In this document: positions 12,219 through 62,215 of the stretch, piece after piece
Position numbering within the stretch: the first letter of the stretch is position 1
Layout: the number at the start of each line of letters is the position of its first letter
Assembly: GCF_003149185.1 (NCBI RefSeq)
Contig: NZ_QGDO01000001.1
Coordinates: forward strand, 1,178,001 to 1,242,000
Length of the DNA: 64,000 nucleotides
DNA from: Sediminitomix flava
GTDB lineage: Bacteria > Bacteroidota > Bacteroidia > Cytophagales > Flammeovirgaceae
Direction of reading: 5' to 3'
Program-made: the position numbers and the translations under genes
Notes under the pieces: model-generated
Seen by the model: the letters and a program-made list of their open reading frames with translations, nothing else
What the model was told of the DNA's origin: nothing
Databases searched by the model: none

Positions 12219-12249
12219 AAAAAAGGCAACACATTTCTGTGTTGCCTTA
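12219..12249 (-). terminator. Terminator of the ATPase gene (copy 2 of duplicated hairpin)
   Basis: About 30 bases are identical to the hairpin at 11159, including the TTTC loop. On the minus strand the stem runs into TTTTTT. It lies just after the stop codon of the DUF3686 ATPase and before the thioredoxin-fold gene. Confidence 0.85.
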
Positions 12250-12269: not shown

Positions 12270-15200
12270 TTAGTTCAATAATTCATTATCCGATTGCTCT
12301 GAGAATTGCTTCAAGACTTCCTTAATTCCGCCCAAGTTTTCGGCAAACTCAGCCAAATAAAGAAGGGCTTGTGCCATTTGTTGATCTCCTCCGCCAATGC
12401 CTTTCAGCTTATTATTCTTGCGAAATGTATCACAGATTTCATCCCAACGAACAGCTTCTGTTTCAGAGATTCGATCTGTCATGGATTTGAATTTTAAAAG
12501 ATTGGATTCAGCTCCTTTGGTCAAGGTCTGAGATTCTCCTTCGTAATGTGAAAGGATTAAATCTTCCAATTCTTTCTCATTCATAATCGGCATAACTTTC
12601 TCGACCATCTTGTTCATATTACGGTAAGAACCTTGCAATTTGAACGATGGCTCTGTTCGATAAGCATCTTCTTGAGCTGCCGAACGAACGTATTCTTGGT
12701 TTACTCGAAGTACGGTTTCTTGAATGCGAATCATCTTCTCCAACACCGAAAGACTTTCGTTCATTTCTTCATTGGAAATATTGCTTTCAAACTCCGCTCC
12801 TTCTCGATCTCCAGTTCGTGCAATCTTGATGAGTGTGTACAAATCTTTCTTACTTCTTGAAGTCAATTTCGACAAGACAGGATTTGAAGTTAGAGAGTTT
12901 TCGATATACGAAAGCTCAAAGGCTTCACTCGAATCACCGATAATTTCACCCAAGTTATAAGTATCTGCACGGTTGGCAAGCATATCTGGAATCTGGAATT
13001 TCGAGCCACTTTCCGTATAAGGGTTACCCGCCATTACGACACAGACTTTCTTTCCTCTGAAGTCATACGTTTTCGTTTCTCCTTTGTAAACCCCTTCAAT
13101 TTTTCGTTGGGCATCACAAAGGGAAATGAATTTCTGCAAAAACTCAGGATTACAGTGCTGAATATCGTCTAGATAAATCATTACATTGTCTCCCATCTCA
13201 AAGGAAAGATTGAGTTTTTCCAACTCTTCCTTCGCTGTTGCATTTGGGGCTTCCGCAGGATCTACCGACGTCACTTGATGCCCAATGGCTGGACCATTTA
13301 TTTTCATAAAAATCAATCCCAATCGGCTTGCCACATACTCCATCAAAGTTGTTTTACCATAACCCGGAGGAGAAACAAGAAGCAAAAGTCCCATACGGTC
13401 TACACGCTTTTCTTGCCCTGCCGCACCGATTTGTTTTGCCATATTATCTCCCATTAGTGGAAGATAGACCTCATCAATCAGTTTGTTTCTCACGAAAGAA
13501 GCCATCACTTTTGGCTTAAAGGATTCTAGTTTTACTTTCTTTTTGAAAGCTTCTAGAATAGATTTCTTTCGCTCTTTGAGTTCTTCAAACTGCTGAACAG
13601 TGACTTGCTGATATTTGGTCAACTTCGAGATAAACGCATGATAATCTAACAGGTATTTCCCTTCAGAAATCAAAGCGTGATCTCCAGCCATTCCTTCTAA
13701 TGTAAAACGTGTAGAAGCTTGCGCTACTGATTTTACCGTAGCATTAGAAATCAGCAGATAAGCCGTTTCTGTAATAGCTGATTGGAAATTCGCTTGTTCA
13801 TCTTCTGACAAAGATTTTAGAAATGCCTTCAACCATGCCTTCTGCAATTCGATTTGCTCCGCAATGCGGTCTTTTTGCATCGCTTTGGTTGTATCTGTAT
13901 AAGCTTTTCTTTTCCCTATTCCATCCAACTGACGAAGGAATTGCTTTTGTAATTCCCCTGCTGCAAAAGACACAGGGAATTCTTTTCCTTCTTCAATTAG
14001 ATCAAATAAGAAGCGGGCTGCCTGACGACTGTTGGCTTCATTCAATAAATGGAAAGATTGGTTAAAAGAAAGAATTAGGCTTTCCAAGTCTCGAAGTAAT
14101 TCTTCATGCTCATCGGTTTTATCGAAAACTTGAAGAATCAAACCCATACCTTTGATACGGTTTGACCATGTATCTTGCTCTGCTCTACCTAAACTATTCC
14201 AGAAGATTTGTGCTAACGTACGGTCATCGGCACTGTAACGAAGTAATGCTGCTCGGTGCTGAATGTCTACCAAAGAAGCTGCGATCAGACTTGCATCGAC
14301 ATCGTGCACTCCTTTTACATAACCTTCTTGATATCGGCTACTCATAAACTCCTGCAACAAGGCATTTCGTTCTTTGGTCTCCATATCCATAAAGGCATTT
14401 TCAGAGATATTCAGTTTACCTGCATTCAGTTCTTCTACAAACTGATACGCCAAGTATTCTGCTCTGTACACTTCATGGTTTTCAGAAACCACAGACTGAT
14501 GCCATACAGGTCTACAAGATTCTAAAGATTCGTCTTCAATTTTCTCATAGAAATTTGTACCCGACATATGATACCAAAGTGCATCGTCCTTGAAGACAAT
14601 ACTTGCTTCTAAGCTTTGCGTATTGACGGTAAACTGATGCTTTCCAAATTTGATCACATTGTCACCACCCACAAATAACTCTTGACGGTCTCTGAGTTGA
14701 CGGACAGCATCCTCCTTGATTGTTTTTAGCTTACTTTCAAGGTCATCTGCTTTGGTCGATTCCTCAATATCGGAAAGCTGCTGTACAATATCTCTGACCT
14801 TATCCACCATCATATCTGAGGCGAAATAGGCATTGATATCATTGATCTCTTTAAAACCTTTTGCCTTTCGGTCTACGCCTTTCAAAATACGATCGGCAGC
14901 AGACATCAAAGACATCGCACGTTTATTACGAGCTTCTTGAAGCTGTGTCTTTTTTCCTTCAAAAGCATTTGCCACTTCGTCTCGTTTCTCAACCAATTCG
15001 ATCAAGAACTCATCGAAGTCTGCAAATTTCCCTTCAAGCTCTTCAAGTTGAACCATGAGTTTGGTCAAGTATTCCTCACAGCGTTCGGGCGTATCACTCA
15101 CGTCCAAATAATTGGAAACCGCTTGAGAAATCAACTTGAGTTGTGCTTGGAATTCCGCTTTCGCTTCAGTGCCTAAAAGGTCTTTTCGTTTCGCTTTTTG

Positions 15201-17180
15201 CTTGGCTTTTACATTATTTAGCTTCGCAAAAATATCTGAAACGTTATCAATAATCTGTGTAGTGTGTGTGGCATCGTCAATTTTGAGGTTAGAAACCACA
15301 TCAATCAACAACTCCAAATCTGCGGAAGTCTGATCGAGAAATTCTCCAACTTCATCCACATCTACTACTTTTGTGGCTTCTTCTAACTTTTGAATGGCAT
15401 CTGTCACCCTATTTTCATAAGGTGCAAGCGCATCGTCACGAAGTAAAAACTCCACACATCGCCTTGAGAGTTTTTCTACATAATCTGCAATTTGCGTCTC
15501 GAAAGCTTCGATCTGTTCCTCATCCACATAACGAATATCTTTGAGAGAAATCAATTCTCCACGCATCGCTCGCAGTTCGGTCAGATCATCAACAAACTCA
15601 TCTACTCTTTCGTGTACTCTTCTGTCAATTGTTCGGAGTAATGCCGTTGCTTTTTCAGAAGATTCCTCCATGCGCTCTTTAGCATGTTTACGCATACGAG
15701 TCACCTTCTCAAATTCCTCAATCGCAGAATTTGCACTATCCTTGATGCTTTGTAGTGGTTCTTGCAAATTGAGTGCTTCTTCTTCAGCCAACCAATAATA
15801 GTTGTCCAAAGTAACAGAAGCATCACGAAGTAAATCGGAATACAAACCGTTGTAAGCATCTCCTTTTTGCGTGAGCAAAATAATCGCTCTACAATCGGAC
15901 ATGGCACGTACAATCTCCTTATTTCCTATTTTGAAAAGACGGCTATCTTTTTGGGCGGCATCATCGGCATTATCAGGATGAACGTAAGGTGTTTTCCAAA
16001 TCTGAAGTCCGTGATTTTTCTTGGCTTCTTCATCGGTTTTGAAATACACCAATTCTCCATTTTTGAAGAAAGAATAACCATGACAAGTCACAGGTGTTTC
16101 AACCCTTCTTTCAATGACATTGTATGAAAGCAAGATATATTCACCAGTAACAGGTTCATAGAATACATACATAGTGTCTTCCCCGTTTGGAGAAACAATT
16201 CTTTTCTCAAAATGAAGATGTTCTAAGCCACTTTCAAACTCCTTGTAATCTCCTGTCTGAAGATAGTATCCATTTGAGAAAATGATTCCTTGATCTTCAG
16301 GAAGAAGTACACAGGCATCAGCAATCGCATCAATACGACGTGCTTCTTTTAGCTTATCGTTATAGACAATGTATCGCCATTTTTTCTCTTGATACGGACG
16401 AATTTTGAGAATAATCAAATTCCCCATATCTGCATAAAGGATTTCGCCATCATCCAACGATTGATCGGCTACTTCTACCTCTTCTGCATAAATTCCTTCG
16501 CCTGTTTCAGTATTATCTTCAATTTTTACGGTCAGATCACCTCCAACAGTTTCTACAAAAAGTCTGTTTTTGATGGAAACATGTGGGTGTTTTCCCATTC
16601 TATGATCTTCACGACTTACTCTACTCCAAGAGAATTCGTGCTGATCGGCTTGTTTAAGCTCACTTTCCGCATTGTTTCGAACATATTTCAGTCCTCCACC
16701 ATCTACAATTTCCCATTTGAAAGCCTTGATATCTTTGATATTCTGACTCACACGGAAAATCATATACAGATTTGGTCCTTGCACCAAAAACTGCGAAAAG
16801 TAAGTATCCTTATAGTATTTGTATAATTCTTTGAAATGCTGTTCGAAAGCCTTGTCTGCTACCAATGATTGCCCATTGGCATGAAAGCTATGATCTTCCT
16901 TTCGGAAAGTGAACGTACTGAATACATCTGAAATCTGAATATCGGTACGCAAACCCAAATGTACATTGTAACCGAAGATAAAATGCTCTCCCACAGGTAC
17001 CATATCTCTTGCAATACAGTTGTTTTCTGTCGTGATACGATCTGTGGCTAAGAGTTGGGTTTCAATAGCTCCAAAAACTTTCTTTCGGGTCTCATTCAAT
17101 TGCTCGAGCCTCGTGCGAAGATCCTCGCCCTGAGTCTGAAGTCTTTTACGAATGATTTCGTAGGTTCCTGTTTCGAGCAT
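12270..17180 (-). CDS. Giant DUF3686/AAA ATPase (annotated elsewhere as DNA repair ATPase)
   Basis: The protein has 1636 residues with no signal or membrane segment. The N-terminal third fits DUF3686: NNCIARDMVPVGEHFIFGYNV near residue 55, then beta-rich repeats that read like a propeller. The middle (about 480-860) is long coiled coil. The C-terminal third carries an AAA domain: Walker A PPGYGKTT near 1271-1278, Walker B MIYLDDIQ near 1330, sensor 1 VVMAGNPYTESG and an arginine-finger-like MLANRADTYNL. The name DNA repair ATPase is inherited and not supported here. It is followed upstream by flotillin and YqiJ-like genes on the same strand, suggesting a membrane-tethered remodelling machine (inference). 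The 192-bp gap to flotillin holds structured repeats. Confidence 0.85.
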   Translation of the reverse strand: MLETGTYEIIRKRLQTQGEDLRTRLEQLNETRKKVFGAIETQLLATDRITTENNCIARDMVPVGEHFIFGYNVHLGLRTDIQISDVFSTFTFRKEDHSFHANGQSLVADKAFEQHFKELYKYYKDTYFSQFLVQGPNLYMIFRVSQNIKDIKAFKWEIVDGGGLKYVRNNAESELKQADQHEFSWSRVSREDHRMGKHPHVSIKNRLFVETVGGDLTVKIEDNTETGEGIYAEEVEVADQSLDDGEILYADMGNLIILKIRPYQEKKWRYIVYNDKLKEARRIDAIADACVLLPEDQGIIFSNGYYLQTGDYKEFESGLEHLHFEKRIVSPNGEDTMYVFYEPVTGEYILLSYNVIERRVETPVTCHGYSFFKNGELVYFKTDEEAKKNHGLQIWKTPYVHPDNADDAAQKDSRLFKIGNKEIVRAMSDCRAIILLTQKGDAYNGLYSDLLRDASVTLDNYYWLAEEEALNLQEPLQSIKDSANSAIEEFEKVTRMRKHAKERMEESSEKATALLRTIDRRVHERVDEFVDDLTELRAMRGELISLKDIRYVDEEQIEAFETQIADYVEKLSRRCVEFLLRDDALAPYENRVTDAIQKLEEATKVVDVDEVGEFLDQTSADLELLIDVVSNLKIDDATHTTQIIDNVSDIFAKLNNVKAKQKAKRKDLLGTEAKAEFQAQLKLISQAVSNYLDVSDTPERCEEYLTKLMVQLEELEGKFADFDEFLIELVEKRDEVANAFEGKKTQLQEARNKRAMSLMSAADRILKGVDRKAKGFKEINDINAYFASDMMVDKVRDIVQQLSDIEESTKADDLESKLKTIKEDAVRQLRDRQELFVGGDNVIKFGKHQFTVNTQSLEASIVFKDDALWYHMSGTNFYEKIEDESLESCRPVWHQSVVSENHEVYRAEYLAYQFVEELNAGKLNISENAFMDMETKERNALLQEFMSSRYQEGYVKGVHDVDASLIAASLVDIQHRAALLRYSADDRTLAQIFWNSLGRAEQDTWSNRIKGMGLILQVFDKTDEHEELLRDLESLILSFNQSFHLLNEANSRQAARFLFDLIEEGKEFPVSFAAGELQKQFLRQLDGIGKRKAYTDTTKAMQKDRIAEQIELQKAWLKAFLKSLSEDEQANFQSAITETAYLLISNATVKSVAQASTRFTLEGMAGDHALISEGKYLLDYHAFISKLTKYQQVTVQQFEELKERKKSILEAFKKKVKLESFKPKVMASFVRNKLIDEVYLPLMGDNMAKQIGAAGQEKRVDRMGLLLLVSPPGYGKTTLMEYVASRLGLIFMKINGPAIGHQVTSVDPAEAPNATAKEELEKLNLSFEMGDNVMIYLDDIQHCNPEFLQKFISLCDAQRKIEGVYKGETKTYDFRGKKVCVVMAGNPYTESGSKFQIPDMLANRADTYNLGEIIGDSSEAFELSYIENSLTSNPVLSKLTSRSKKDLYTLIKIARTGDREGAEFESNISNEEMNESLSVLEKMIRIQETVLRVNQEYVRSAAQEDAYRTEPSFKLQGSYRNMNKMVEKVMPIMNEKELEDLILSHYEGESQTLTKGAESNLLKFKSMTDRISETEAVRWDEICDTFRKNNKLKGIGGGDQQMAQALLYLAEFAENLGGIKEVLKQFSEQSDNELLN

Positions 17181-17208
17181 TGTCGTATTTTTTGAATTGA
17201 AAAATATA

Positions 17209-17350
17209 TATCACTATTCTTAGAGTTAGCGAAGCGATCTAAGAATCTATTCACGAGATAAAGCTTTATAAAAAAATTTCTGCGTTTTGAGTCTGAAGAC
17301 TCTTGCTTTATTCATGAATTTGAAGATCACTTCGTTAACTCTTCAAATAG
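17209..17350. repeat. Intergenic hairpin repeats with conserved 13-nt loop
   Basis: Hairpin 1 (17216-17246) has stem ATTCTTAGA/TCTAAGAAT and loop GTTAGCGAAGCGA. Hairpin 2 (17318-17348), inverted, has stem ATTTGAAGA/TCTTCAAAT and a loop that on the minus strand reads GTTAACGAAGTGA. Between them is the palindrome GAGTCTGAAGACTC (17289-17302), which also occurs in the repeats at 30834 and 39334. Stem sequences differ but pairing is kept. Confidence 0.75.
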
Positions 17351-17372
17351 TCTAATCAGGTTTTACTTTTGA

Positions 17373-19562
17373 TTAAAGAACAAAATCAGTCACACCCATT
17401 TTCTCTGCTACTTTCATAGCATTTGAAAGGATGCCTTTTGATTTGTCATCAGTACTCATGTCAGACAACTTGTTCAATGCTGCTGCAACGCTCAAGTTTT
17501 TCAAGTCTTCTGGGTTTACTCCCAACTGATCAATTACTGATTTGATATTTTCAATCACATTGCTTCCGTTACCGTTTACTGTTCCCATCAAGTCTTGAGA
17601 AAGTTGTTTTACGGTATCACTGTTATCGATGAATTTCTCAATCGAACGTCCTTTAGCAATAGAGTTCACCATCTTATCGAAGAACATTGACTCACCACCA
17701 ACGATATCGATATTCGAATGCTTAAGCCCTTCGCTCATTACTGAAGCCTGTGCAGTTGCAATATCTTTTTGTGTATCGATATTTGCCAAAGCAACCTCTT
17801 TGTCTACGTTCAATTGTAGTTTGAAACGCTCCATTGATCTTGACTCTTCGTCCATTGCTTTCAGTGCATTTGCTTCTGCCTCGATACGTTGCGCTTCCAC
17901 CAATGCTTTCTTCTCCATGATCGCAGCCTCTGCCATTCCTTGCTTCTCGATAGCCACAGATTTAGCTTCCATACCTTCTGCCTCAGCAATCATCTGAGAT
18001 TTTGTAACCTCAGCTACTGCTTCTCCTTTCTTAATTTCAAGATCAGCATCTACTTCACCTAGTTTTCTGTTTGCTTCCGATTGAGAATCTGCTTTCAGTT
18101 TTACTGCTTCCGATTCTGCTTTCGCTTCTTCTAGAATAACTTCTGCTTTCGCCAATCCTTCTGCTTTCGTAGCTGTTGCTTTTGCTTCCAGTACTTGCGC
18201 TTCCGCCATACCTGTTGCAGCAATCTCTGCAGAAGTTGCATCTGCCAATACTTTCTTCGCTTCAGCACTTTGTGTAGCCGTTTCGAATTCTGCTTGCGCC
18301 TCAATTCTACGCTTTTCAGCAATCAACTTCGCAGACTCTTTATCTGCTTCCGCTTGCTTCAACTGACCAATCAAGCCTGATTCTGCTTTTTGCTCAGCCT
18401 CTTTGATTGCCACTGCTTTCTGACGTTCAGCCTCAGCATATGCTTGCGTATCTTTGATTTTTTCTTCTTCAGAAACTACCGCTTTTTGAACTGCTACACG
18501 CTCACGGATTACTTCTTGAATATTTCTTCTTTCTTCTTCTAGTGATTTCTCTTTTTCAATACGAGCTAACTCAACTACTCTTTCTCTTTCGTTTTCAGCT
18601 AGCTGACGCTCACGCTCAATTCTCTCGTTTTCAAGAACTTCTGTACGTTCTCTGTTTTTCTCCGCAACAAGAATCTGACGGTCTTTATTTTTCTCGACTA
18701 CTTCAAGCTCTTCCTGTACTTTCAAGCGAGCTTCTTCCGATTTCTTACGCTCTTCCTGACGAGTAACTTCAGCCAAAGACTCTTCTTGTGCTCTGACAAT
18801 TGCAATTTCTCTTCTTTGCTTCTCTTCCGCCTCTGCTTGCTGACGCTCCAAAGCCAAAACAACTTCTTTTGCTTCAACATCTTGTTTGGTCAATAGCTTT
18901 TTCTCCTCATTACGAATGTGGTTGGCTTGAATTTTTTGAGCAGAAGTAAGATCCGTAATCTTACGGATACCTTCAGAATCCAAGATATTATCTGGGTCAA
19001 GGTGCTCTACTTCTGTTTGCTCCAAGTAATCAATCGCACAGTCATCCAAGATATAACCATTCAAATCTGTACCGATTACGTCAATTACTTCACGCTTGAA
19101 TTCTTCACGAGCGTTGTACAAATCAGCAAAATCGAATTTCTTACCTACTGTTTTCAATGCTTCAGAGAATTTAGCTTCAAAAAGAGTCATTAAAGACCCT
19201 TGATCTGAAGCACGCTCACAACCAATAGTTTGGGCTACTTGCGCAACATCTTTCACATCGTTATTTACCCTAACGAAAAAGGCTACACGGATATCTGCTC
19301 TTAGGTTGTCTTTGCAGATCAGTCCTTGCTTTGCTTCTCTTGAAATTTCAATTGTTTTCAATGAAATGTCCATGATTTCAGCCTTATGGACCACAGGCAC
19401 TACAAAAATACCTTGGAAATTCACTTTCAAACCTTGCATACCTGTACGTACTAAGGCTTTTCCTTGAGGTACTTTTTTGTAGAATTGTAAGATAATTAAC
19501 ACTAAACCTAATAATACCGCAGAGATGATCCCTACTAGCATCAAAGAAGCTTGTAATTCCAT
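17373..19562 (-). CDS. Flotillin-like SPFH/Band 7 protein (YqiK type)
   Basis: The protein has 729 residues, longer than typical flotillins (about 500). One N-terminal membrane segment (about 5-28) is followed by the SPFH domain (about 30-225; VRTGMQGLKVNFQGIFVVPV, LEQTEVEHLDPDNILDS). A very long Glu/Ala/Lys-rich coiled coil (about 230-620) contains repeated AEAxGMAEA-like units, and a small C-terminal region (about 640-729) has helical content. Such proteins form large oligomeric rings or cages on the inner membrane in lipid-ordered domains. It lies 70 bp after the YqiJ-like gene, the pairing known from E. coli yqiJ-yqiK, and before the AAA ATPase gene. One operon is likely. Confidence 0.9.
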   Translation of the reverse strand: MELQASLMLVGIISAVLLGLVLIILQFYKKVPQGKALVRTGMQGLKVNFQGIFVVPVVHKAEIMDISLKTIEISREAKQGLICKDNLRADIRVAFFVRVNNDVKDVAQVAQTIGCERASDQGSLMTLFEAKFSEALKTVGKKFDFADLYNAREEFKREVIDVIGTDLNGYILDDCAIDYLEQTEVEHLDPDNILDSEGIRKITDLTSAQKIQANHIRNEEKKLLTKQDVEAKEVVLALERQQAEAEEKQRREIAIVRAQEESLAEVTRQEERKKSEEARLKVQEELEVVEKNKDRQILVAEKNRERTEVLENERIERERQLAENERERVVELARIEKEKSLEEERRNIQEVIRERVAVQKAVVSEEEKIKDTQAYAEAERQKAVAIKEAEQKAESGLIGQLKQAEADKESAKLIAEKRRIEAQAEFETATQSAEAKKVLADATSAEIAATGMAEAQVLEAKATATKAEGLAKAEVILEEAKAESEAVKLKADSQSEANRKLGEVDADLEIKKGEAVAEVTKSQMIAEAEGMEAKSVAIEKQGMAEAAIMEKKALVEAQRIEAEANALKAMDEESRSMERFKLQLNVDKEVALANIDTQKDIATAQASVMSEGLKHSNIDIVGGESMFFDKMVNSIAKGRSIEKFIDNSDTVKQLSQDLMGTVNGNGSNVIENIKSVIDQLGVNPEDLKNLSVAAALNKLSDMSTDDKSKGILSNAMKVAEKMGVTDFVL

Positions 19563-19632
19563 TTGTTATAATTTTTAGACTAAGGTTATTAAAGAATGTA
19601 TTTTATAAAAAAATGATATTGGTATTCAAAGA

Positions 19633-20325
19633 TTAATACGGCTCAACGATAAAGGCCTTTTTGTTTTCGTCATAATCAATGACTAAAGCATCGGAGCCCT
19701 TTTTCAAGGTTTTTCCTTCACCCGTAACGGCATAAATTTTCTGATGATAACTTCCTGTTTGCACTTCTACCTGGCCTTTTTTATCGCCTCTAACTTCCAG
19801 AATGACCGTACATTTGTTCCCGATCACATTGGTATCTTCTTCCATTTTTAGTTGATTGAAAAATTTACTCAACGGAAAAACGATAATTTTTGTAAAGGTC
19901 AGACCAATCAAAAATACAGGCACAAAAAGTAAAGCTGCAACAGTCCATGACGTATTCTCCAAATAGTGATTCCCTAACACAGAACCTACCCACATAAAGG
20001 CAAAAAGAAAGGTCAGAATAGCCATAAGTGGCACTTGCCCGATATGGAAAAATTGCAATATCTGAACAAATGCACTTGGAGCAGATGCAGTGGTTTGAGC
20101 TTCTGCTTTCACCTCAACTTCAAGCTCTGCCTCGGCTTCAATCTCCACACCACTTACACCACCTTCCATATCAACATCTGCCTCTACATCAGCATCCATA
20201 TCAACGTCAAATGCATCGATATCGAAAATACCGAGAAAAGTCAGCATCCAATAAAGAAGTGAAAAAGCCACTAAAATAGTGTACGGTAAATTAATTGGTT
20301 GTAGTGCTTCGATCAGAAATTCCAT
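19633..20325 (-). CDS. YqiJ-like inner-membrane protein with OB-fold domain
   Basis: The protein has 230 residues. Membrane segments lie near residues 14-34, 100-122 and 128-150. A cytoplasmic OB-fold-like domain of NfeD/YqiJ type (about 160-230) follows, with GNKCTVILEVRGDKKGQVEVQTG and a PY end. Partners of SPFH proteins commonly carry such a domain. Unusual is a low-complexity acidic stretch at about 35-85 (DVDMDADVEADVDMEGG, then alternating EAEAELEVEV) between the first and second membrane spans. It is the first gene of the presumed three-gene operon with the flotillin and the AAA ATPase. Confidence 0.8.
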   Translation of the reverse strand: MEFLIEALQPINLPYTILVAFSLLYWMLTFLGIFDIDAFDVDMDADVEADVDMEGGVSGVEIEAEAELEVEVKAEAQTTASAPSAFVQILQFFHIGQVPLMAILTFLFAFMWVGSVLGNHYLENTSWTVAALLFVPVFLIGLTFTKIIVFPLSKFFNQLKMEEDTNVIGNKCTVILEVRGDKKGQVEVQTGSYHQKIYAVTGEGKTLKKGSDALVIDYDENKKAFIVEPY

Positions 20326-39690: not shown

Positions 39691-39848
39691 AAGCATCTTA
39701 TATATCTATAATCAAATCTATTACTTTATACAATTTCCCCTTCTCTTTGAGACCTCTCTCCCCCTCACATTTGGTACATAAAAATGAAATTGCTGTAAAA
39801 GTAAAAAGGTGAAATCGTCATCATTTTTTGATCAAAATTGATAGCACA

Positions 39849-41651
39849 ATGAATAGATTTTTAAAAACAGCTTCAGCATTATTTCTCGCAAGTCAACTTG
39901 GAGCTTGTTCGATAGATACAGTAGAGGAGCAAAAACCTAATGTATTACTTATTCTGACAGACGATCAAGGTTGGGGAGATTTATCCTTCAATGGGAATCA
40001 GCATTTACAGACCCCAAACTTAGATGGACTTTTTGAGCAAAGTACCGTTCTTTCCAATTTTTATGTCAACCCTGTTTGTGCACCAAGTCGTGCGTCATTA
40101 TTGACAGGACGTTACAATTTGCGTACGGGAACTTCTTGGGTGACGCGTGGGACTGAAAACATGCGAACTGAAGAAGTTACGATGGCTGAAATTTTTAAAG
40201 ATGAAGGTTATAAAACGGGACTTTTCGGGAAGTGGCATAATGGTGCGCATTACCCACAAGACCCTAACGGACAAGGTTTCGATGAATTTTGGGGCTTCTG
40301 TGCTGGGCATTGGTCAAATTACTTCGACACAGAGCTTCAGCACAATCAAGAAATGACGCCTACAAAAGGATATATTACAGATGTTTTGACTGATAAAGCA
40401 ATGGTATTTATGGAAGAAAATAAAGAAAAACCGTTCCTCTGCTTTGTACCTTACAATACACCACATACGCCTTTCCAAGTAGCTGATAAATATTTTGATA
40501 AGTATAAAGATATTGACTTTGGAAAAGGAGAAGAGGGAAATAAACAAATTGCGGCCGTCTATGGAATGATTGATAACATGGATGAAAATATCGGGCGAAT
40601 GCTTCAGAAAATGGAAGATTTAGACTTGGATGAAAATACAATCGTGATTTTCCTTACGGATAATGGCCCTCAGCAATACCGTTATAATGGCGCTTTTAGA
40701 GGTAGAAAAACAGATGTACTTGAAGGTGGTGTAAGGGTTCCGTTCGCTATAAAGTGGCAAAACCAAATACAATCACAGAAAATCATGCAATTTTCAGCAC
40801 ATATCGACATTCTTCCAACGCTTCTTGATCTATGTAAAATTGAAAAACCACAGTACTTAAAACTAGACGGTATCAGTTTATCAAAAAGTATTATGGGAGA
40901 AAAAAATAAAGAAAGTGATAGAATTCTCTTTGACATCATGACAAATCAAGATGTTGTATCAGACTATAAAGGAACAGCTATTCAAGCCCCTTACAAATGG
41001 GTGATTGAACATGGAAAAAAGTCGCTTTACAATATTAAACATGACCCTAGCGAACAATCCAACTTAATAGACTCTCTGAATGAAAAAGGAAAGCAATTAG
41101 AATTAGCTTACTTGAATTGGTTTGATGATGTTACCAAAAATGGGTTTGACCCTTTCTTAATTCCAGTGGGTTACAATCAAGCTCCTGTTGTTCAGCTTCA
41201 AGCACATGAAGCAAGATTAGTTGGAGACTTAAAGTACAAACATAGCGTTCACGGTTGGGCTCATGATTGGGTAATCAATTGGAAAAATACCACAGATCGG
41301 ATTGAGTGGGATATTGACGTAATAGAAGATAGTAGTTTTGAAATCTTTTTAAATTATAGCTGTTCAGAAGATCAGATTGGATCAGGACTAATGGTAAAAG
41401 CAAATGGACAAGAACTTCGTACAACTATTTCGGAAGCATTTATACCTACCCAAATTGATAGTCCTGATAGGGCTTCAAGAGAGCAAGAAGCCTATGAACA
41501 AACTTGGGGAAAACTTTCTTTAGGTAAAATTCAATTGCCTAAAGGGAAACATACGATTTCACTTTCTGCTACAAAAATAGGCAAAACTGAGGTTGGAGAA
41601 CTCAAGAATATAACAATGAGTAAACAGGTTGGCAACCTAGTTAAAATATAA
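39849..41651 (+). CDS. Sulfatase lipoprotein (formylglycine type)
   Basis: The protein has 600 residues from the ATG at 39849. Lipoprotein signal with LGAC, Cys at 20. The type I sulfatase domain (about 30-430) has metal ligands in LLILTDDQGWGDL, the formylglycine motif CAPSR with Cys77 then LLTGRYNLRTGT, GKWHNG, and LTDNGPQ. A C-terminal beta-sandwich of about 150 residues (from about 450) could bind carbohydrate. It would remove sulfate esters, which implies a sulfated glycan, unexpected in a plain mannan locus. No maturase (anSME or FGE) gene is in the window. It is on the plus strand, opposite to the locus. Confidence 0.9.
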   Translation: MNRFLKTASALFLASQLGACSIDTVEEQKPNVLLILTDDQGWGDLSFNGNQHLQTPNLDGLFEQSTVLSNFYVNPVCAPSRASLLTGRYNLRTGTSWVTRGTENMRTEEVTMAEIFKDEGYKTGLFGKWHNGAHYPQDPNGQGFDEFWGFCAGHWSNYFDTELQHNQEMTPTKGYITDVLTDKAMVFMEENKEKPFLCFVPYNTPHTPFQVADKYFDKYKDIDFGKGEEGNKQIAAVYGMIDNMDENIGRMLQKMEDLDLDENTIVIFLTDNGPQQYRYNGAFRGRKTDVLEGGVRVPFAIKWQNQIQSQKIMQFSAHIDILPTLLDLCKIEKPQYLKLDGISLSKSIMGEKNKESDRILFDIMTNQDVVSDYKGTAIQAPYKWVIEHGKKSLYNIKHDPSEQSNLIDSLNEKGKQLELAYLNWFDDVTKNGFDPFLIPVGYNQAPVVQLQAHEARLVGDLKYKHSVHGWAHDWVINWKNTTDRIEWDIDVIEDSSFEIFLNYSCSEDQIGSGLMVKANGQELRTTISEAFIPTQIDSPDRASREQEAYEQTWGKLSLGKIQLPKGKHTISLSATKIGKTEVGELKNITMSKQVGNLVKI

Positions 41652-41938: not shown

Positions 41939-44900
41939 ATGAGGAAGTTTTACCTTTTTTTTATTCTTCTAGGTTTCACTCAATCTTTATGGGCTCAAAC
42001 TAGGCCTACAAAGGGGAATGGAAACAGTTCCGATCCTTTCCAAATTGAAAATCTAGATCATCTCAGATGGCTCTCTGAGGGAGGAAGCGATGGAATGACT
42101 AATGCTGAACGTTGGAATAAAAATTATATTCTAATGGCAGACATCGATGCTTCAGAAACTAGCACATGGAATGACGGGCTTGGTTTTAGCCCTATTGGGG
42201 TATTACCAGATAAGTTTCAAGGAAACTTTAATGGTAATCGTCATACAATTTCCAACCTATACATTAATCGACCAGATGAAGACCAAGCGTCCTTTATTGG
42301 TTATGCGTTGAATGCCCTGATTACCAATTTAGGTATCGTAGATGCTAATATAACAGGTGCTCGAATAATAGGTGGTATCATAGGCTATTCATATGATTCT
42401 GATGTGAAATATTGTTACACTTCAGGTACTTTGACTGGAACTGATTACGTCGGAGGTATCATGGGATATGCTAATGATTATAGCTATGTTTACGATTCCT
42501 TTACATCTGCTTCTATAAGTGGAAATGATAAAGTAGGTGGTATCATTGGTGAAGGAATTTCATATTCTAGGATATACAGTTCATATGCTTTTGGACCTAT
42601 TGCAGGAATTTCAAATGTTGGTGGCATTTATGGTGTTGCAAACCCAGCATATGCATATAACACATACTGGGACTCTGAAACTACAGGGCAAGTTACAGAT
42701 GCCTACCTAAGTGCATCTTCCGGCTTAGCTACATCTGATTTTGCTACTGTTGATAATTTCTCAAGTTGGGATTTTGAAAACGTTTGGACAATCACTACAC
42801 AAACAGATATAGATAGCAATCCAAGACCTTATCTCAAGTGGATGCTTTTTGATGATTACATTGAAGTTTTTGCATCACCTGTTGAGGCTGATAAATCTCT
42901 TACTGAAACAGATTACTACAACTATGGAGATGAAATCACTCTAGAAACTACTGCACATCCAGGCTTTACATTTAGCCACTGGGAAAATGCAGAAGGTGTT
43001 AATATCTCAACAGAGAACCCTTATACATTCACTTATTCAGCGGATTCTACATCAAAATATACAGCTGTATTTGAGTATAGCTTTGAATTTGCTGGTGGTG
43101 ATGGTAGTTCAAGTGATCCTTATCAAATTGAAACACTAGAGCAATTATCATATTTGAGTTATGTTCGTAGCTTATTCCATAAGTCCTTCATTTTAATAAA
43201 TGATATAGATGCTACTGAAACAAGTTCATGGAATGAGGGCAAAGGATTTGAGCCACTTGGATACGATAGAGAATATAGTTCAACTGGAACTTCTTACTCA
43301 ACCTATGCTTTCAATGGAGATTTTAATGGAAATAATCATGTGATTTCAAACCTCACGATTAACCGCCCGACGGAAGAATACATCGGACTTTTCGGATATT
43401 TATCTAATGCTAAAGTATATAATTTAGGCCTTACAGATATTAATATTCAAGGAAATAATAATGTCGGAGCAATAGTAGGATACGCTTATAATTCAGAAGT
43501 AAAATCTACCTATTCCACAGGTCAAATAAATGGAATCAATTATTCTGGGGGTATTGTAGGTCGTATAAGTTCCTCATCTATTGAAAACTCGATCTCATTT
43601 GCAGACATTACATTGTCATCAAATTATGGCGGAGGACTAACAGGCTATATGCACAACAGTAGCATTAAAAATTCATATTCCACTGGTAGCGTTACAGGTA
43701 ACAGTTCTATTGGAGGTTTAGTAGGGTATTATATCTCAGGAAATATTACCGACTCTTATTGGGATAAGGAAACTTCTGGCTTAACTTCTTCTTCAGGTAG
43801 TGATGACAGTTTTGGTTTGACTACTACGCAATTCTCTGATATATCTAATTTTACAAATTGGGATTTCAATGGAATATGGGAAGTTACAACACTTTCTGAT
43901 ATTGACTCAAATCCTAGACCATACCTTCAAGCTTTCATCTATGAATATTTTATATCGTTAGATGCTAGTCCATCTGAAGCGACTGCAAACCTTGAAGGAT
44001 ACGGTGGAGTAGTTGTTGATAGTGAAATAACTCTAACTACAACTGCTAAAAATGGATATGAATTCTTAAAATGGACGAACTCTGAAGGTGATAGTATTTC
44101 AAATGAAAATTCATTTACGTTTGTATTTACGGCTGATAGTTCTACTCAATATACAGCTCATTTCATAGAAAATTATGAATTTGCTGGTGGTGATGGTAGT
44201 TCAAATGACCCTTATCAAATAGCCAACCTAGAACAGTTGGAATACCTCAGTAACGTTTCATCTCTTTGGAGAGATAGTTTTATACTAACTACTGACATTG
44301 ATGCATCTGAAACTGCTACTTGGAATAACGGTAAAGGTTATAGACCTATAGGTAGTAGTAATCAACCATTTTACGGTGACTTCGACGGTAACAATCATAC
44401 GATATCAGGTCTTACTATAAATCGTCAAAATGAAGAATACTCAGGTCTATTTGGCTATGTTTTAAATGCTAGTTTTCAAAATATTGGACTTGTAGATGTT
44501 AATATATTAGGGTCTAATTATACTGGAGCTTTAATTGGCTACAACTGGAATAGCAGCGTCAGTCACGCTTATTCAACAGGAACTGTAAGCGGTAATGAAT
44601 TTGTCGGAGGACTTCTTGGATATCAATATACATACGATAACTCTGCATTTGTTGAACACTCCTTCTCATCTGCAGATATTATTGCTGAAAGCAGAGCCGG
44701 AGGATTGGTTGGCCACCTATCTAGTGGTTATGTAGAGAATACTTATGCCACAGGAAGTATTACAGGTAGTAGTTCTACTGGGGGTATAGTTGGTACCAAA
44801 AACTCAGCTGGTATTGTAAATAATTCATATTGGGATATTGAAACAACAGGTTTGACTACTTCTTCTGGTAGTCTTGATAGCTTTGGGCTAACTACTTTAG

Positions 44901-47900
44901 AATTTGCAGATGCTTCAAACTTCACAAACTGGGATTTTCAAGGTAATTGGGAAATTGGTACACAATCAGACATCGATACAAACCCTAGACCTTATCTTCA
45001 ATCATTTATTTATGACTATTTCATATCTATTGACGCAGACCCGACTAATGCAATAGCTAGTTTTAGCGGACATGGAGGTATCATTGTAGATTCAGAACTC
45101 ACATTAGAGGCTTCGGCAATAAATGGATATGAATTATGGAAATGGACAAACTCTAATGGTGATAGTCTTTCTAATACCAGTCCATTAACATTCCTTTTCA
45201 CAGCTGATAGTTCTATTCAATATACCGCCCATTTCATAGAAAATTATGAATTTGCTGGAGGAGATGGTACTGTAGATAATCCTTACAGGGTTGAGAATTT
45301 ACTTCAACTTGAATACATCAGTAATGTTCCTACACTTTGGAGTAAACATTTCGTTCTCATTTCTGATATTGACGCATCTGAAACAACTAGCTGGAATAAT
45401 GGCAAAGGTTTCAAACCAATAGGTCAAAATCAAAATAATTTTACAGGTAGCTTTAATGGTTTTGGTTATACAATTAGCGGACTTTACATTAATAGACCTA
45501 ATGAAGATTATATTGGTCTATTTGGCTACTCTACAAATGCACGTATCGAAAACTTAACCTTTACTGATTTTAATTATACTGGTAGAGATTATGTTGGTGG
45601 AATTGCGGGTTATATATCTAACACTGACTTATCTACTCTATTTGCTAAAGGTACTATAAATGGAGACGACAACTTAGGGGGGCTAGTTGGTAGATCTACT
45701 TCTTATACATCCATTGAAAATGTACACTCGAATGTGAGCATTACAGGAGACTCAGATCTTGGTGGTATTGTAGGTTCTTTCTACGACTCTAGACTTTCAT
45801 ATTCTTATGCCATTGGAGCTGTTAATGGAAATTATGATAATGGAGGACTTATTGGATACCAATCATCATCTACGATAAACTCATCCTTCTGGGATACTGA
45901 AACGACAGGCTTAACTAGCTCATCAGGCAGTGATAATAGTAGTGGTTTATCTACGCTTCAATTCTCTAGCGTAGCTAATTTTACAGATTGGAATTTCAAT
46001 GGTGTTTGGGGTATTCTTACCGAATCATCTTTTGAAGACGTTCCAAGACCTTATCTGATGGCCACTTTGTATGATCGTTTAATTGACGTTAAAGCTTCAC
46101 CATCATACGCTGCTAGATACTTCAGTGGTAAAGGGTATCATGACTATGGCGAAGAAGTTTGGTTAGCGGCTCCAGCTAAGTCGGGTTTCTGGTTTGAATT
46201 GTGGACTAATGATCAAGGAGATACCGTTAGTACATCTAACCCATTTATATTCGAGTTTGCACAAGATAGTTCATTAACATATACTGCTCACTTTTCAGAA
46301 AGTTTTGGTTTTGCTGGGGGTGATGGAACAGTTGAAGATCCTTATCAAATAAACCGTATGCTTCATCTTACATACCTTAGTAATGTAAGATCATTATGGG
46401 ATAAGCACTTTATTCTTACAGCTGATATAAATGCTGCAGAAACTGTTACTTCTAACAATGGGAAAGGATTTAGTCCTATCGGTAACAATGAGGTAGATTT
46501 TATAGGGTCGTTTAATGGTAACGGTTTCAAAATTGATAGCTTACACATAAACAGACCTCTCGAAAGTTACATTGGTTTATTCGGATCAACGAACTATAGT
46601 TCTACCACTATTAGCAATGTAGCACTAACTAATGCTAATATCGTTGGATACAACTATGTTGGGGCGTTAGTAGGCTATCTCGATGATGCGATTGTAATGA
46701 ATTCCTATTCAACAGGATCTATTAGAGCAAATAAATACTCTGGGGGACTTGTTGGATATAATTATTATGCAGACATTAAATATTCCTTCTCATCTTGTGA
46801 CATTATTGCTAATGACTACGTTGGAGGTCTTGCTGGATACATATATTATAGCTCAAGTATAGAGAACTCTTATGCTATGGGTTCAGTAATTGGTAATAAC
46901 TATACAGGTGGATTAACTGCTTATGCACCGTACTCCAATTACATCATTAATTCTTATTGGGACAAAGAAACAACTCTACAAACTAGTTCTGCTGGTAGTG
47001 ATGATAGTTTTGGTTTAGCGACAGTTGATTTCGCTGATCAGAATAATTTTACTGACTGGGATTTTGAAAATACTTGGATAATGAAATTAGATGAAAGTAT
47101 AGACTCTTCAACTAGACCTTATTTCAAGTATATGTACTATGATGGAAAAATTGAAATATCAACTAGTATAGAAGAAGCAATAGCTACAATCTCAGGGGCA
47201 GACTTCTATAACTATCAAGATGAAATCACATTAGATGTAACTCCGGTCAACGGTTATCAATTTGGAGCTTGGGTAGATGCAGAAGGAGATACCTTAAGTA
47301 CAACACCTTCTTACACATTTACATTTACAAATGAAAGTAACCTTGTGTATTACCTTCTTTTTGATGAAACATATGAATTTGCTGGGGGTGACGGTTCTTC
47401 AAGTGATCCTTATCAAATTGAAACACTTTTACAGTTAGAGTATTTAAGTAATATTTCATCACTTTGGGATAAAAACTTCATACTAGTGGCTGATATTGAT
47501 GCCTCTGCTACTGTAAACTGGAATGATGGAAAAGGATTTAGACCAATAGGTAACAATGATAAATATTTTAGTGGTAGGTTCAATGGTGATGAATTTAAGA
47601 TTTACAATCTTACAATTAATCGACCTAATGAAGACTATATAGGATTATTTGGTCATGTAAGAAACTATAATGACATCAGATTTATTTCACTTCGAAATGT
47701 CAATATTGTTGGAGGTAATTATGTTGGTGCTATTGCTGGTTATGTCTACTATTCAGATATTTTAAACAGTTATTCTACAGGTTCTGTAAATGGTCAAAAC
47801 TACGTGGGTGGAATCGTAGGTTACACAAGTAATTCAGGTAGTCATATCACCTCTACATTCTCTACAGCATCCGTAACTGGAAACGAATATGTGGGAGGGC

Positions 47901-50900
47901 TAATTGGTTATAACAGGTCTTCAAATATCAGTAAATCATATTCAATAGGGGCTATAAATGGAAATGAATATGTTGGTGGAGCTATAGGTCATGTTTATTC
48001 TGGTTCTATAAATGATATTTACTGGGATAAAGAAACAACTCTACAAACTAGTTCTGCTGGTAGTGATGATAGTTTTGGTTTAACAACTTCGCAATTCGAG
48101 AATCAAGAAAGCTTTACCAATTGGGACTTTGACAATACTTGGGTCTTGCAAGATGACTCTGAAATTGATTCTAATACGAGACCTTACTTACAGTGGATGT
48201 ACTATGATACGCAAACTGAAATTGCATTAGAGTTCCATGATGCTGCTGAAATTGTTTCTGGTTCTGGTGGATTAAATTATGATGATGAAATCACTTTAGA
48301 GGTGACCCCTGTACAAGGCTACATTTTTGAAGCATGGCTTAATGCTGAAGGTGATACTTTGAGTTATGACAATCCTTACACATTCACTTTTACTGAAGAC
48401 AGTCCAACAACATACTATGCACGTTTTGACGTAAATGTAGAGTTTGAAGGTGGAGATGGTTCAAGTAATGATCCGTATCAGATTGCAACTCTTGAACAAC
48501 TAAACTACTTAAGTACTATTTCCGCTATATGGAACAGACATTTTGTCCTGATAGCTGATATTGATGCTTCTGAAACATCTAGCTGGAATGATGGTAAAGG
48601 ATTCAGACCAATCGGAAATAATTCATCTCAGTTCAATGGTACATTCAATGGTGCTGGAAATGTAATATCAAACCTATATATCAATAGACCATTAGAAAAC
48701 TATGTTGGACTTTTCGGTAGGACTACATCTGGTAACATAAAAACAACCATTAAAAATGTAGGACTTTTAAATGCCAATATTACTGGTGATGATAGAGTTG
48801 GTGCTATAGCAGGATATTTATATCAAAGTACTGTTTCCCATTCTTTTGCAACAGGTATAGTAAACGGTGGAGAGTATGTCGGAGGTATAGTTGGACGTAT
48901 TTATTATTCTGATATATCAAACTCATTTAGCAACTGTGATGTCACAGCTAGTAGTTCTGTAGGAGGCATTGTAGGTAGTATAGATTATAATTCGAATGTT
49001 ATCAATTCTTATGCATTGGGTGCTGTTTCAGGAAGTTATAGTACTGGTGGAATAGCTGGCTATCATTACACAGATGAATATATTCAGAATTCATATTGGG
49101 ATAAAGAAACTACAGGGCTTTCAACTTCTCCTGGAGTAGATGATAGTTTTGGTTTAACTACATCTCAATTTGCTGAGCAAGAAAACTTTGCTAATTGGGA
49201 CTTCCATGGCACTTGGTTAATGGAAACGAATACTGATATTGATTCAAACCCACGTCCTTATCTTCAATGGATGTATTTTGATGCTCAAATATCAGTTAGT
49301 GAACAACCTACATATGCAAGTACTGAGTTTGTAGAAATTATAAGTGCAAACTACGATCAAGAAGTTACACTTAGTGTCAATCCTAAAAATGGATATGCTT
49401 TTGAAGCTTGGATAAGCGAAGCTGGAGATACGCTTAGTACAGTGAATCCTTATACATTCACTTTCACTGAAGAAAGTCCTCTAGAAATCACAGCTCAATT
49501 CAAAGAAGATTATGAATTTGTAGATGGTGATGGTTCATATTCTAATCCTTACCAAATTGAAACTCTAGCTCAATTAGAGTTTTTGAGTAATGTAAGATCA
49601 CTTTGGGATAGAAATTTCGTATTAATCTCAGATATCGATGCAAGTGAAACATCTAACTGGAACGAAGGCAAAGGATTTAGCCCTATTGGCGACAATAATC
49701 ACAGTTTCTATGGAAGATTTGATGGTAACTCACATATCATAAGTAATCTATACATCAACAGAGACCAAGATTTTGTTGGACTGTTCGGAAATGTATATGG
49801 AACGATCAAACAACTAGGCTTGAAAGACGCTTCAATAAAAGGAGCTAATCAAGTAGGTGGTCTTGCAGGAGATTTAGATGGAACTATAGAATCTTGTTTC
49901 GTTTCTGGTAATATTGAAGGAAATGTAAATATTGGAGGTCTTTCTGGTTATGTATACAGAGGCAATTTACTGAATTCATTTAGCTTAGCTGAAGTTAGCG
50001 GTATTCAAAATGTTGGAGGTGTAATAGGTTCTTTGGAAGATGAAAGCGAAGCCAATACACTTTACGCATCCGGAAATGTATCAGGTCAAAGCAATACAGG
50101 TGGTGCTATAGGTTATGCATCTTCTTCAAGTAAAGTTGAGATCGTATACTGGGATACTCAAACTACTGGTCAATCTTCATCTTCGGGAAGTTTATCATTC
50201 ATTTTTGGCTTATCTACAATTAATTTCAGTCAAGAATTTATGTTATCAGGTTTCGACTTTGGAGGTATCTGGGAAATTACAACACTAAATGAGTTTGATG
50301 AAAACCCGAGACCTTACTTACAATGGCAATTGTATGATGACTATATTTCAATCTATTCTACTCCTTCTGAAGCAAGTGAAACAATATCTGGGCATGGAGG
50401 TGTAAATAATGGAGATGAAGTTACATTTGAAGCCTTAGCAGTTAATGGTTATGTATTCTCTCATTGGGAAACTGTTGATGGAGATAGTATTTCTTCAGAT
50501 AATCCATATACATTCACGTTCAACAATGGGGATGAGACAGAGTATATTGCTCAATTTGAAAATGCATTTAGTTTTGCTGGTGGTGATGGTTCTATTCATG
50601 ATCCTTATCAAATTTCTACTCTTGATCACTTAGAGTATCTCTCAAATGTATCTAGTCTTTGGAACAGGCACTATATCCTAATCAACGATATCGATGCTAC
50701 AGCAACTCAGACATGGAATCAAAGTCAAGGTTTAAAGCCTATTGGTAATCAAAACAATTCCTTTACTGGCTCATTTAATGGACAAGGCTTCGTAATTAGT
50801 AACCTTGAAATCAATTATATGAATGAGAAGTATGTAGGTCTATTTGGTAGAATTAGCTATGCTACTATTAAAAATGTAGGCTTAACTAATGCTTATGTAT

Positions 50901-62015: not shown

Positions 62016-62215
62016 ACTAAAAAAAGTTTTATAAAAAGTATGACACAAATATGAAAGTGTATGAAAGACATTTAAAGGGAGGATCTTTTCATAACAGAAG
62101 GGTATTTTGTACGTGTTAAAAACACCCCTCCAGTTTTTCTACTACTCCCCCTTTCTCTCCCTTAAATATTAATGTGTTGCTCAGTGGTCTTTAAGTAAAA
62201 TAAATATTAGTCCCC

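What the first reader, a model, noticed from the sequence alone, without database searches (positions are those of the whole stretch)
12270..20325. Three-gene membrane machine: YqiJ-like protein, long flotillin and giant DUF3686/AAA ATPase
Seen: three consecutive minus-strand genes encode an OB-fold inner-membrane protein, a 729-residue SPFH protein with a ~390-residue coiled coil, and a 1636-residue ATPase with a propeller-like N-terminus, long coiled coil and intact Walker A/B. Known: YqiJ-YqiK pairs exist in E. coli, and SPFH proteins can cage AAA proteases (HflKC-FtsH). Inference: the flotillin scaffold recruits the ATPase through matching coiled coils, forming a membrane-remodelling, stress or defence device. 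The label DNA repair ATPase has no support in this context.
Basis: partly seen in the sequence, partly recalled or inferred. Interest (0 to 1): 0.62.

Follow-up and report, generated by a model that had tools for sequence, protein, structure and literature searches.

The report
Flotillin–ATPase arm of a PspA system
Three neighbouring bacterial genes encode a membrane anchor, a flotillin-like scaffold and a giant ATPase that form one conserved unit of an already described membrane-stress system built around PspA; this is a new member of that system rather than a new machine.

Summary
The three genes are real. They match a gene group already in print: Ravi et al. 2024 (PMC11237479) report CesT/Tir-PspA operons with a band-7/flotillin protein, a propeller + coiled-coil AAA+ ATPase and a YqiJ/YuaF protein, and 'abbreviated' forms like this one. 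The P. aeruginosa bac operon (PMC10948618) looks like a studied example.

My surveys quantify it. SPFH lies within 4 kb upstream of the ATPase in 51 of 53 loci with enough flank, in 10 of 10 and 8 of 8 gene-bearing genomes among 395 Bacteroidota and 398 Pseudomonadota, and beside it in 12 of 12 plasmid records. All 18 sampled genomes also encode CesT-PspA, unlinked in 7, the window's included. Against this, 8 of 18 hand-picked genomes lack PspA above cut-off.

The AAA+ module's best structural matches are MoxR-type (CbbQ, NorQ), but sequence favours RuvB/FtsH. Likely function: ATP-driven remodelling of membrane-bound assemblies, probably PspA, on an SPFH platform. The flotillin-ATPase contact is untested; defence and DNA repair are unsupported.

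The parts
12270..17180 (-). DUF3686-AAA+ ATPase, 1636 aa
   Evidence: PF12458 E 2e-183, PF25472, PF00004, PF07728; single copy in the genome; 40-56% identical to 53 aligned homologues
15993..17057 (-). mostly beta, propeller-like domain, residues 42-396 (inside DUF3686)
   Evidence: AlphaFold2 model mean pLDDT 86.9; best match Z 8.3, 204 residues, 4.9 A, a WD40-type propeller, weak
14676..15941 (-). helical / coiled-coil stalk, residues 414-835, including DUF7902
   Evidence: AlphaFold2 model; PF25472 res 583-666
12471..13526 (-). AAA+ module, residues 1219-1570
   Evidence: AlphaFold2 model mean pLDDT 86.1; CbbQ 6l1q Z 16.8 over 251 residues, 3.9 A
13344..13373 (-). Walker A, SPPGYGKTTL, residues 1270-1279
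   Evidence: identical in 54 of 54 aligned proteins
13155..13184 (-). Walker B, VMIYLDDIQH, residues 1333-1342, Asp in place of the usual catalytic Glu
   Evidence: D1338 and D1339 in 54 of 54
17373..19562 (-). YqiK-like SPFH (flotillin-type) protein, 729 aa
   Evidence: 30% identity to E. coli YqiK, E 1e-42; hhalign of the family to YqiK 100%
19470..19562 (-). N-terminal membrane segment, residues 1-31
   Evidence: Kyte-Doolittle maximum 3.12
19050..19475 (-). SPFH / Band_7 domain, residues about 30-171
   Evidence: PF01145 E 2.9e-14 in the genome search; 55.2 bits on the domain alone
17763..18917 (-). E/A/K-rich presumed coiled coil, residues 216-600
   Evidence: composition; not folded
19633..20325 (-). 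YqiJ-like (NfeD/YuaF-type) inner-membrane protein, 230 aa
   Evidence: PF21001 YqiJ_N; hhalign of the family to E. coli YqiJ 93.8%; three hydrophobic regions
12223..12248 (-). terminator-like hairpin just after the ATPase gene
   Evidence: 11-pair stem followed by a T run

Best explanation
The three genes are the YqiJ-SPFH-AAA+ arm of the CesT/Tir-PspA envelope-stress system, here in the 'abbreviated' form with the CesT-PspA pair on another contig of the same genome. Proposed working: the SPFH protein, anchored by its N-terminal helix and the NfeD-type YqiJ protein, forms a membrane-attached scaffold; the giant ATPase sits on the cytoplasmic side, its propeller and helical stalk choosing or holding the client, its C-terminal AAA+ ring doing the work; it reshapes or takes apart membrane-bound assemblies, most likely the ESCRT-III-like PspA polymer handled by the CesT-like chaperone, when the envelope is stressed. 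Shown here: gene identity, conserved linkage, co-occurrence with CesT-PspA, predicted domain layout, conserved ATPase residues. Inferred: ring assembly, contact with SPFH, PspA as client, stress role.
For: Linkage: SPFH within 4 kb upstream in 51 of 53 loci with at least 2.2 kb of flank, SPFH and YqiJ in 49 of 52 with at least 3 kb. Broad samples: 10 of 10 DUF3686 genomes among 395 Bacteroidota and 8 of 8 among 398 Pseudomonadota. Co-occurrence with the CesT family: in Bacteroidota strong matches (E < 1e-30) in 10 of 10 against 15 of 385 (Fisher 1.4e-13), or 10 of 10 against 40 of 385 at E 1e-3; in Pseudomonadota DUF2170 in 8 of 8 against 42 of 390 (Fisher 3.7e-8). Neither is corrected for kinship, and in Bacteroidota 9 of 10 pairs are physically linked. 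The telling cases are unlinked: the window's genome (CesT-PspA on contig C5) and 6 of the 8 Pseudomonadota genomes. In-line and abbreviated forms change places 7 times by parsimony on the quick ATPase tree; well-supported branches force at least 3. Printed data: operon class (PMC11237479 section 19); B. subtilis SPFH protein YdjI is needed to bring PspA to the membrane (PMC8581546 abstract); P. aeruginosa bacA-F are co-transcribed and BacB-F rise 6.1- to 13.5-fold without BacA (PMC10948618 passages).
Against: PspA is not always there: of 18 genomes picked mainly for abbreviated or odd loci, 6 have no PspA match and 2 more only below the cut-off, including the isolate Wohlfahrtiimonas populi (G402); in a planctomycete bin (L057) the PspA copies are distant and show no CesT neighbour. 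Fifteen Bacteroidota genomes have CesT-PspA without this ATPase, and no SPFH or YqiJ within the 6-16 kb fetched. Loci L016 and L043 lack SPFH nearby; in a search of 8 genomes SPFH of this family was found for L016 on another contig but not at all in the bins of L043, L015 and L049. In P. aeruginosa, deleting the likely SPFH orthologue cost only about 20% of biofilm (PMC13086221 passage). No interface with SPFH or PspA was tested. Asp for Glu in Walker B could mean slow hydrolysis.
Confidence: 0.55

Rival explanations
1. Membrane protein quality control or cofactor loading independent of PspA: a MoxR-like ATPase that remodels membrane-protein clients inside an SPFH enclosure, loosely like HflKC-FtsH but without proteolysis.
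For: AAA+ module closest in structure to CbbQ and NorQ, which act on enzyme clients (their roles recalled apart from the entry titles); genomes with the unit but no PspA match; S. aureus flotillin microdomains hold and stabilise unfolded proteins (PMC11222466, start of abstract in a listing; PMC13086221 passage).
Against: Strong co-occurrence with CesT-PspA; none of the six gene families that recur in 20 or more loci is a vWA protein, the usual partner of MoxR proteins (recalled).
Confidence: 0.25
2. Anti-phage or anti-bacterial defence device.
For: PA3728-PA3732 of P. aeruginosa are among 17 genes induced in all phage-infected samples (PMC12041424 passage); patchy distribution (10 of 395, 8 of 398) and presence in 12 plasmid records, three of them of chromosome size.
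Against: No convincing PADLOC match for the three proteins; the five neighbours examined are a thioredoxin-like protein, an M28 peptidase, a DUF4919 protein, a histidine kinase and an AraC-type regulator; induction is what a membrane-stress response would also show.
Confidence: 0.07
3. DNA repair ATPase, as Pfam titles it and some records annotate it.
For: Pfam title of PF12458; RuvB_N below its cut-off; among five E. coli AAA+ proteins RuvB scores best by sequence (22.8 bits, hhalign 95.8%).
Against: RuvB matches span only about 40-75 residues around the P-loop; the gene sits with membrane-protein genes in nearly every locus.
Confidence: 0.03

Closest known systems
CesT/Tir-PspA operon with band-7/flotillin, propeller-AAA+ and YqiJ/YuaF (Ravi et al. 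2024, PMC11237479, section 19 read)
   Same: Same three protein types; the paper states that abbreviated operons without PspA exist and might work with PspA encoded elsewhere
   Different: This member is unlinked from CesT-PspA; section 19 gives no linkage counts and calls the AAA+ protein only 'novel'; the divergent LexA/CI-like regulator of Bacteroidota operons is not named in the main text by 'LexA' or 'S24' (figures and tables not seen)
Pseudomonas aeruginosa bacABCDEF (PMC10948618, passages)
   Same: BacA DUF2170/CesT-like, BacB PspA; BacC short NfeD and BacD SPFH (PMC13086221 passages); next gene in PAO1, PA3728, listed as 'ATPase' (PMC8190622 passage)
   Different: One six-gene operon with a proposed sigma-54 site; that BacE is PA3728 and a DUF3686 protein is inferred from position and the label, its sequence was not examined
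E. coli YqiJ-YqiK
   Same: NfeD-type membrane protein next to SPFH protein; 30% identity to YqiK
   Different: No ATPase next to it
MoxR AAA+ remodelers CbbQ / NorQ
   Same: Best structural matches, Z 16.8 and 16.1; PF07728 AAA_5 in 34 of 34 members
   Different: Those are small AAA+ proteins with vWA partners (recalled; NorD vWA in entry titles); here one 1636-residue chain with propeller and stalk; Walker B DD; sequence not closer to MoxR proteins
B. subtilis YdjGHI-PspA (PMC8581546, abstract)
   Same: SPFH protein plus membrane proteins place PspA at the membrane
   Different: No giant AAA+ ATPase in the abstract's account

Membership tests
CesT/Tir-PspA band-7/AAA+ operon (Ravi class) | YqiJ/YuaF protein, SPFH protein and propeller-coiled-coil AAA+ ATPase encoded together | tested here: met
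CesT/Tir-PspA band-7/AAA+ operon (Ravi class) | CesT/Tir-PspA pair in the operon, or (as the paper suggests for abbreviated forms) PspA elsewhere in the genome | tested here: met
   Not in the operon; PF22550 E 1e-51 and PF04012 E 3e-43 side by side on contig C5
SPFH superfamily, YqiK type | N-terminal membrane segment, Band_7 domain, long coiled coil, NfeD-type neighbour | tested here: met
   coiled coil by composition only
SPFH superfamily, YqiK type | Ring or cage assembly at the membrane | not testable with these tools
   no complex prediction
MoxR-type AAA+ | Best structural matches among solved chains are MoxR-type | tested here: met
   top 15 rows are CbbQ, NorQ, dynein and midasin, Z 16.8 to 13.0, next ClpA 12.9; Foldseek alone is mixed: CbbQ and NorQ lead, with ClpC, MCM, RuvB and Vps4 within about tenfold in E-value
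MoxR-type AAA+ | Sequence closer to MoxR-clade proteins than to other AAA+ | tested here: not met
   RuvB and FtsH score above McrB and RavA; five E. coli proteins only, shallow profile (Neff 2.0)
HflKC-FtsH-type protease complex | Protease domain on the AAA+ protein | tested here: not met
   no peptidase family on the ATPase
DNA repair ATPase | DNA repair function | not testable with these tools
   only a database title; context is membrane-protein genes

The most novel reading that the evidence does not exclude
The DUF3686 ATPase is a functional analogue of Vps4 for the bacterial ESCRT-III-like PspA: a giant AAA+ motor, MoxR-like in fold and probably of another clade than Vps4, that is held in an SPFH enclosure and disassembles or reshapes PspA polymers supplied by the CesT-like chaperone.
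Probability: 0.25. Interest if true: 0.75.

Novelty: new member of a known kind. Interest (0 to 1): 0.4.

Why it matters
How bacterial PspA/ESCRT-III-like polymers are taken apart is open (PMC11237479 says it is unknown how PspA homologues without an associated AAA ATPase regulate assembly; passage). The surveys here turn a one-sentence suggestion in print into a testable pairing: this ATPase is rarely found away from SPFH-YqiJ (51 of 53 loci with SPFH), and all 18 DUF3686 genomes in the two phylum samples also encode a CesT-PspA pair, in 7 of them apart from the operon. It also suggests that the database name 'DNA repair ATPase' misleads.

Tried and rejected
Rfam and tRNA scans of the window: nothing. 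PADLOC: Cas11a on the flotillin (E 0.0004) and mad8 on the ATPase (E 0.02) taken as composition or P-loop chance. PDB sequence search with the flotillin profile: no hit at 0.01. PDB sequence searches with the ATPase: matches around the P-loop only, to p97, RuvB and others (best 60 of 92 and of 91 shown). Viral fold library: many phage MoxR-like and other AAA+ proteins, nothing specific. Fold search of the N-terminus: mostly propellers, weak. PspA tree: the two PspA copies of the window's genome that were included fall outside the in-operon clade of Bacteroidota (99 SH-aLRT, quick tree), so whether the operon split or was assembled cannot be told. The ATPase tree is also quick and carries a long-branch warning that names the window's row. 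FtsH and Vps4 were considered as models for the motor; neither is among the 50 rows, which does not exclude them, and a Vps4 chain stands at rank 30. Papers: no hit for DUF3686 or for 'DNA repair ATPase' with flotillin in the held library; of the wider searches only the first 15-20 rows were listed.

Limits and dropped rows: the 50 loci came from exact peptide patterns of the window's protein, so they lean to nearer relatives. Seven of 60 loci have under 2.2 kb upstream of the ATPase (L012, L015, L018, L035, L046, L049, L060) and were not counted for linkage. The SPFH, YqiJ, CesT, PspA and regulator profiles were built from these same loci. The CesT threshold of E < 1e-30 was set after seeing a gap between 6e-38 and 6e-10. 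G000 and G400 are in their samples because they hold the gene; without them the counts are 9 of 394 and 7 of 397. Most neighbours outside the operon were not annotated.
Full report
What is there. Three minus-strand genes at 12270-20325 encode, in order of transcription, a 230-aa YqiJ-like membrane protein, a 729-aa SPFH protein and a 1636-aa DUF3686-AAA+ ATPase. The window is part of a 6.6 Mb, 39-contig genome that holds one copy of the ATPase. Gaps of 70 and 192 bases and terminator-like hairpins on both sides fit one transcription unit, though no transcript was seen.

Identity of the parts. Whole-protein hmmscan misses the SPFH domain in the window's protein and shows it in 1 of 27 relatives, which I put down to the filter against biased composition; the domain alone gives Band_7 55.2 bits, and E. 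coli YqiK is 30% identical. YqiJ: PF21001, and hhalign 93.8% to E. coli YqiJ. The ATPase was modelled in two overlapping parts, residues 1-845 (mean pLDDT 86.9) and 825-1636 (86.1). The first is a helix, a mostly beta propeller-like domain (42-396; best match Z 8.3) and a helical stalk; the second a small beta domain, a long helical region, the AAA+ module (1219-1570) and a C-terminal helix.

Which AAA+. By structure the module is nearest to MoxR-type proteins: CbbQ 6l1q Z 16.8 (251 residues, 3.9 A), NorQ 16.1, then dynein 14.8 and midasin 13.6, with ClpA at 12.9. Foldseek's own ranking is less clear: CbbQ and NorQ lead, but ClpC, MCM, RuvB and Vps4 chains follow within about tenfold in E-value. 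By sequence it is not MoxR-like: against five E. coli AAA+ proteins the profile ranks RuvB (22.8 bits) and FtsH (11.3) above ClpA (4.4) and McrB (-0.1), and RavA was not reported. PF07728 (dynein-related AAA_5) matches 34 of 34 members and PF05496 RuvB_N 29 of 34. I call it MoxR-like in fold and leave its clade open.

Conserved company. Homologues came from a pattern scan of a species-genome collection (50 loci) and from a Bacteroidota sample (9 further loci). Of 60 loci including the window, 53 have at least 2.2 kb upstream; 51 have the SPFH gene within 4 kb. Of 52 with at least 3 kb, 49 have both SPFH and YqiJ. Of 49 with at least 5 kb, 34 also have PspA (32 with CesT), 13 including the window are 'abbreviated', 2 have no SPFH. 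The exceptions are L016, whose genome has SPFH on another contig, and L043, a metagenome bin in which none was found; none was found either in the bins of L015 and L049, whose loci are too short to count. Broad samples agree: 10 of 395 Bacteroidota genomes have the ATPase, all 10 with YqiJ-SPFH, 9 with the full regulator-CesT-PspA-YqiJ-SPFH-ATPase row; 8 of 398 Pseudomonadota genomes have it, all 8 with YqiJ-SPFH. In the plasmid collection 12 of 72,556 records have the ATPase; 10 have SPFH next to it by coordinates, the other 2 by profile. Three of the 12 records are of chromosome size.

The missing partner. The window's genome has two strong PspA genes and a weak third. One, on contig C5, is next to a CesT_Tir_1 protein, the pair that full operons carry in line. 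A separate pair is seen also in Flexithrix (L094), in the genome of L012 (L096; its ATPase lies at a contig end, so linkage there is unknown), in Colwellia (L104) and in five more Pseudomonadota genomes (L193-L197); the pair in G460 lies about 85 kb from the operon on the same contig, and G564 has in addition a second DUF2170 gene by the operon. Strong CesT_Tir_1 matches (E < 1e-30) occur in 10 of 10 ATPase genomes and 15 of 385 others in the Bacteroidota sample (Fisher 1.4e-13); at E 1e-3 the others are 40 of 385. DUF2170 occurs in 8 of 8 and 42 of 390 in the Pseudomonadota sample (Fisher 3.7e-8). These tests ignore kinship, and linkage explains much of the first. On the quick ATPase tree in-line and abbreviated forms need 7 changes, of which well-supported branches force at least 3. 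Against an obligate tie: in 18 hand-picked genomes, 6 show no PspA and 2 only sub-threshold matches; some are metagenome bins, but G402 is the Wohlfahrtiimonas populi isolate, again without a match, and the PspA copies in the genome of L057 are distant and show no CesT neighbour. The core is thus the trio, and CesT-PspA its usual but not universal partner.

Already in print. Ravi et al. 2024 (PMC11237479; section 19 read in full, other passages) describe this operon class, the propeller + coiled-coil AAA+ ATPase, the abbreviated form and the guess that it works with PspA elsewhere. In P. aeruginosa, bacA-F are one operon by RT-PCR and BacB-F rise 6.1- to 13.5-fold in a bacA mutant (PMC10948618 passages), BacC and BacD are NfeD and SPFH proteins (PMC13086221 passages), and PA3728 is listed as an ATPase (PMC8190622 passage). 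PA3728-PA3732 are called phage shock proteins and are among 17 genes induced in all phage-infected samples (PMC12041424 passage). Deleting the SPFH gene there cost only about 20% of biofilm (PMC13086221 passage), which argues against a large role in those conditions. In B. subtilis the SPFH protein YdjI is needed to bring PspA to the membrane (PMC8581546 abstract).

Reading. I think the trio is the scaffold-and-motor arm of a PspA-type membrane stress system. Gene content, linkage and co-occurrence are shown; assembly, contacts, client and phenotype are inferred. Defence and DNA repair have no support beyond phage induction of a likely relative and a database title. The finding is a new member of a known kind; what is added is the measured linkage, the separate CesT-PspA pair in the same genomes, the Walker B change and the fold comparison.

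Noticed in passing
L014:4453-5250 and 27 further loci: Full Bacteroidota operons have a divergent Cro/C1-type regulator; the one scanned has a Peptidase_S24-like half in which a catalytic serine is not evident by eye, and a Hymenobacter plasmid copy is annotated LexA family.
   Followed up: partly
L204 (plasmid pQBR103, NC_009444): One gene row joins PspA, rhomboid, DUF2491, DUF350, DUF1190 and glutathionylspermidine synthase with a YqiJ-like gene, SPFH and this ATPase, uniting operon groups that PMC11237479 lists apart.
   Followed up: no
L125 (own genome, contig C12:17000-34000): A second, distant YqiJ-SPFH pair (SPFH 540 aa) without a DUF3686 ATPase nearby.
   Followed up: no
L092, L095, L097: A second PspA paralogue without a CesT neighbour recurs in the window's genome, Flexithrix and the genome of L012.
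   Followed up: partly
window 41939-52069 (+): 3376-aa ORF; its first 1020 residues match GLUG motifs, InlB B-repeat-like domains and, barely over cut-off, the N-terminal region of M26 peptidases.
   Followed up: no
window 39828-41651 (+) and 58944-62048 (-): Sulfatase, and a TonB-dependent receptor with a carboxypeptidase-regulatory-like domain, as in polysaccharide-use loci.
   Followed up: no
L036, L037, L038, L056, L118: A rhomboid-family gene lies inside or beside these gammaproteobacterial or Pseudomonadota operons.
   Followed up: no
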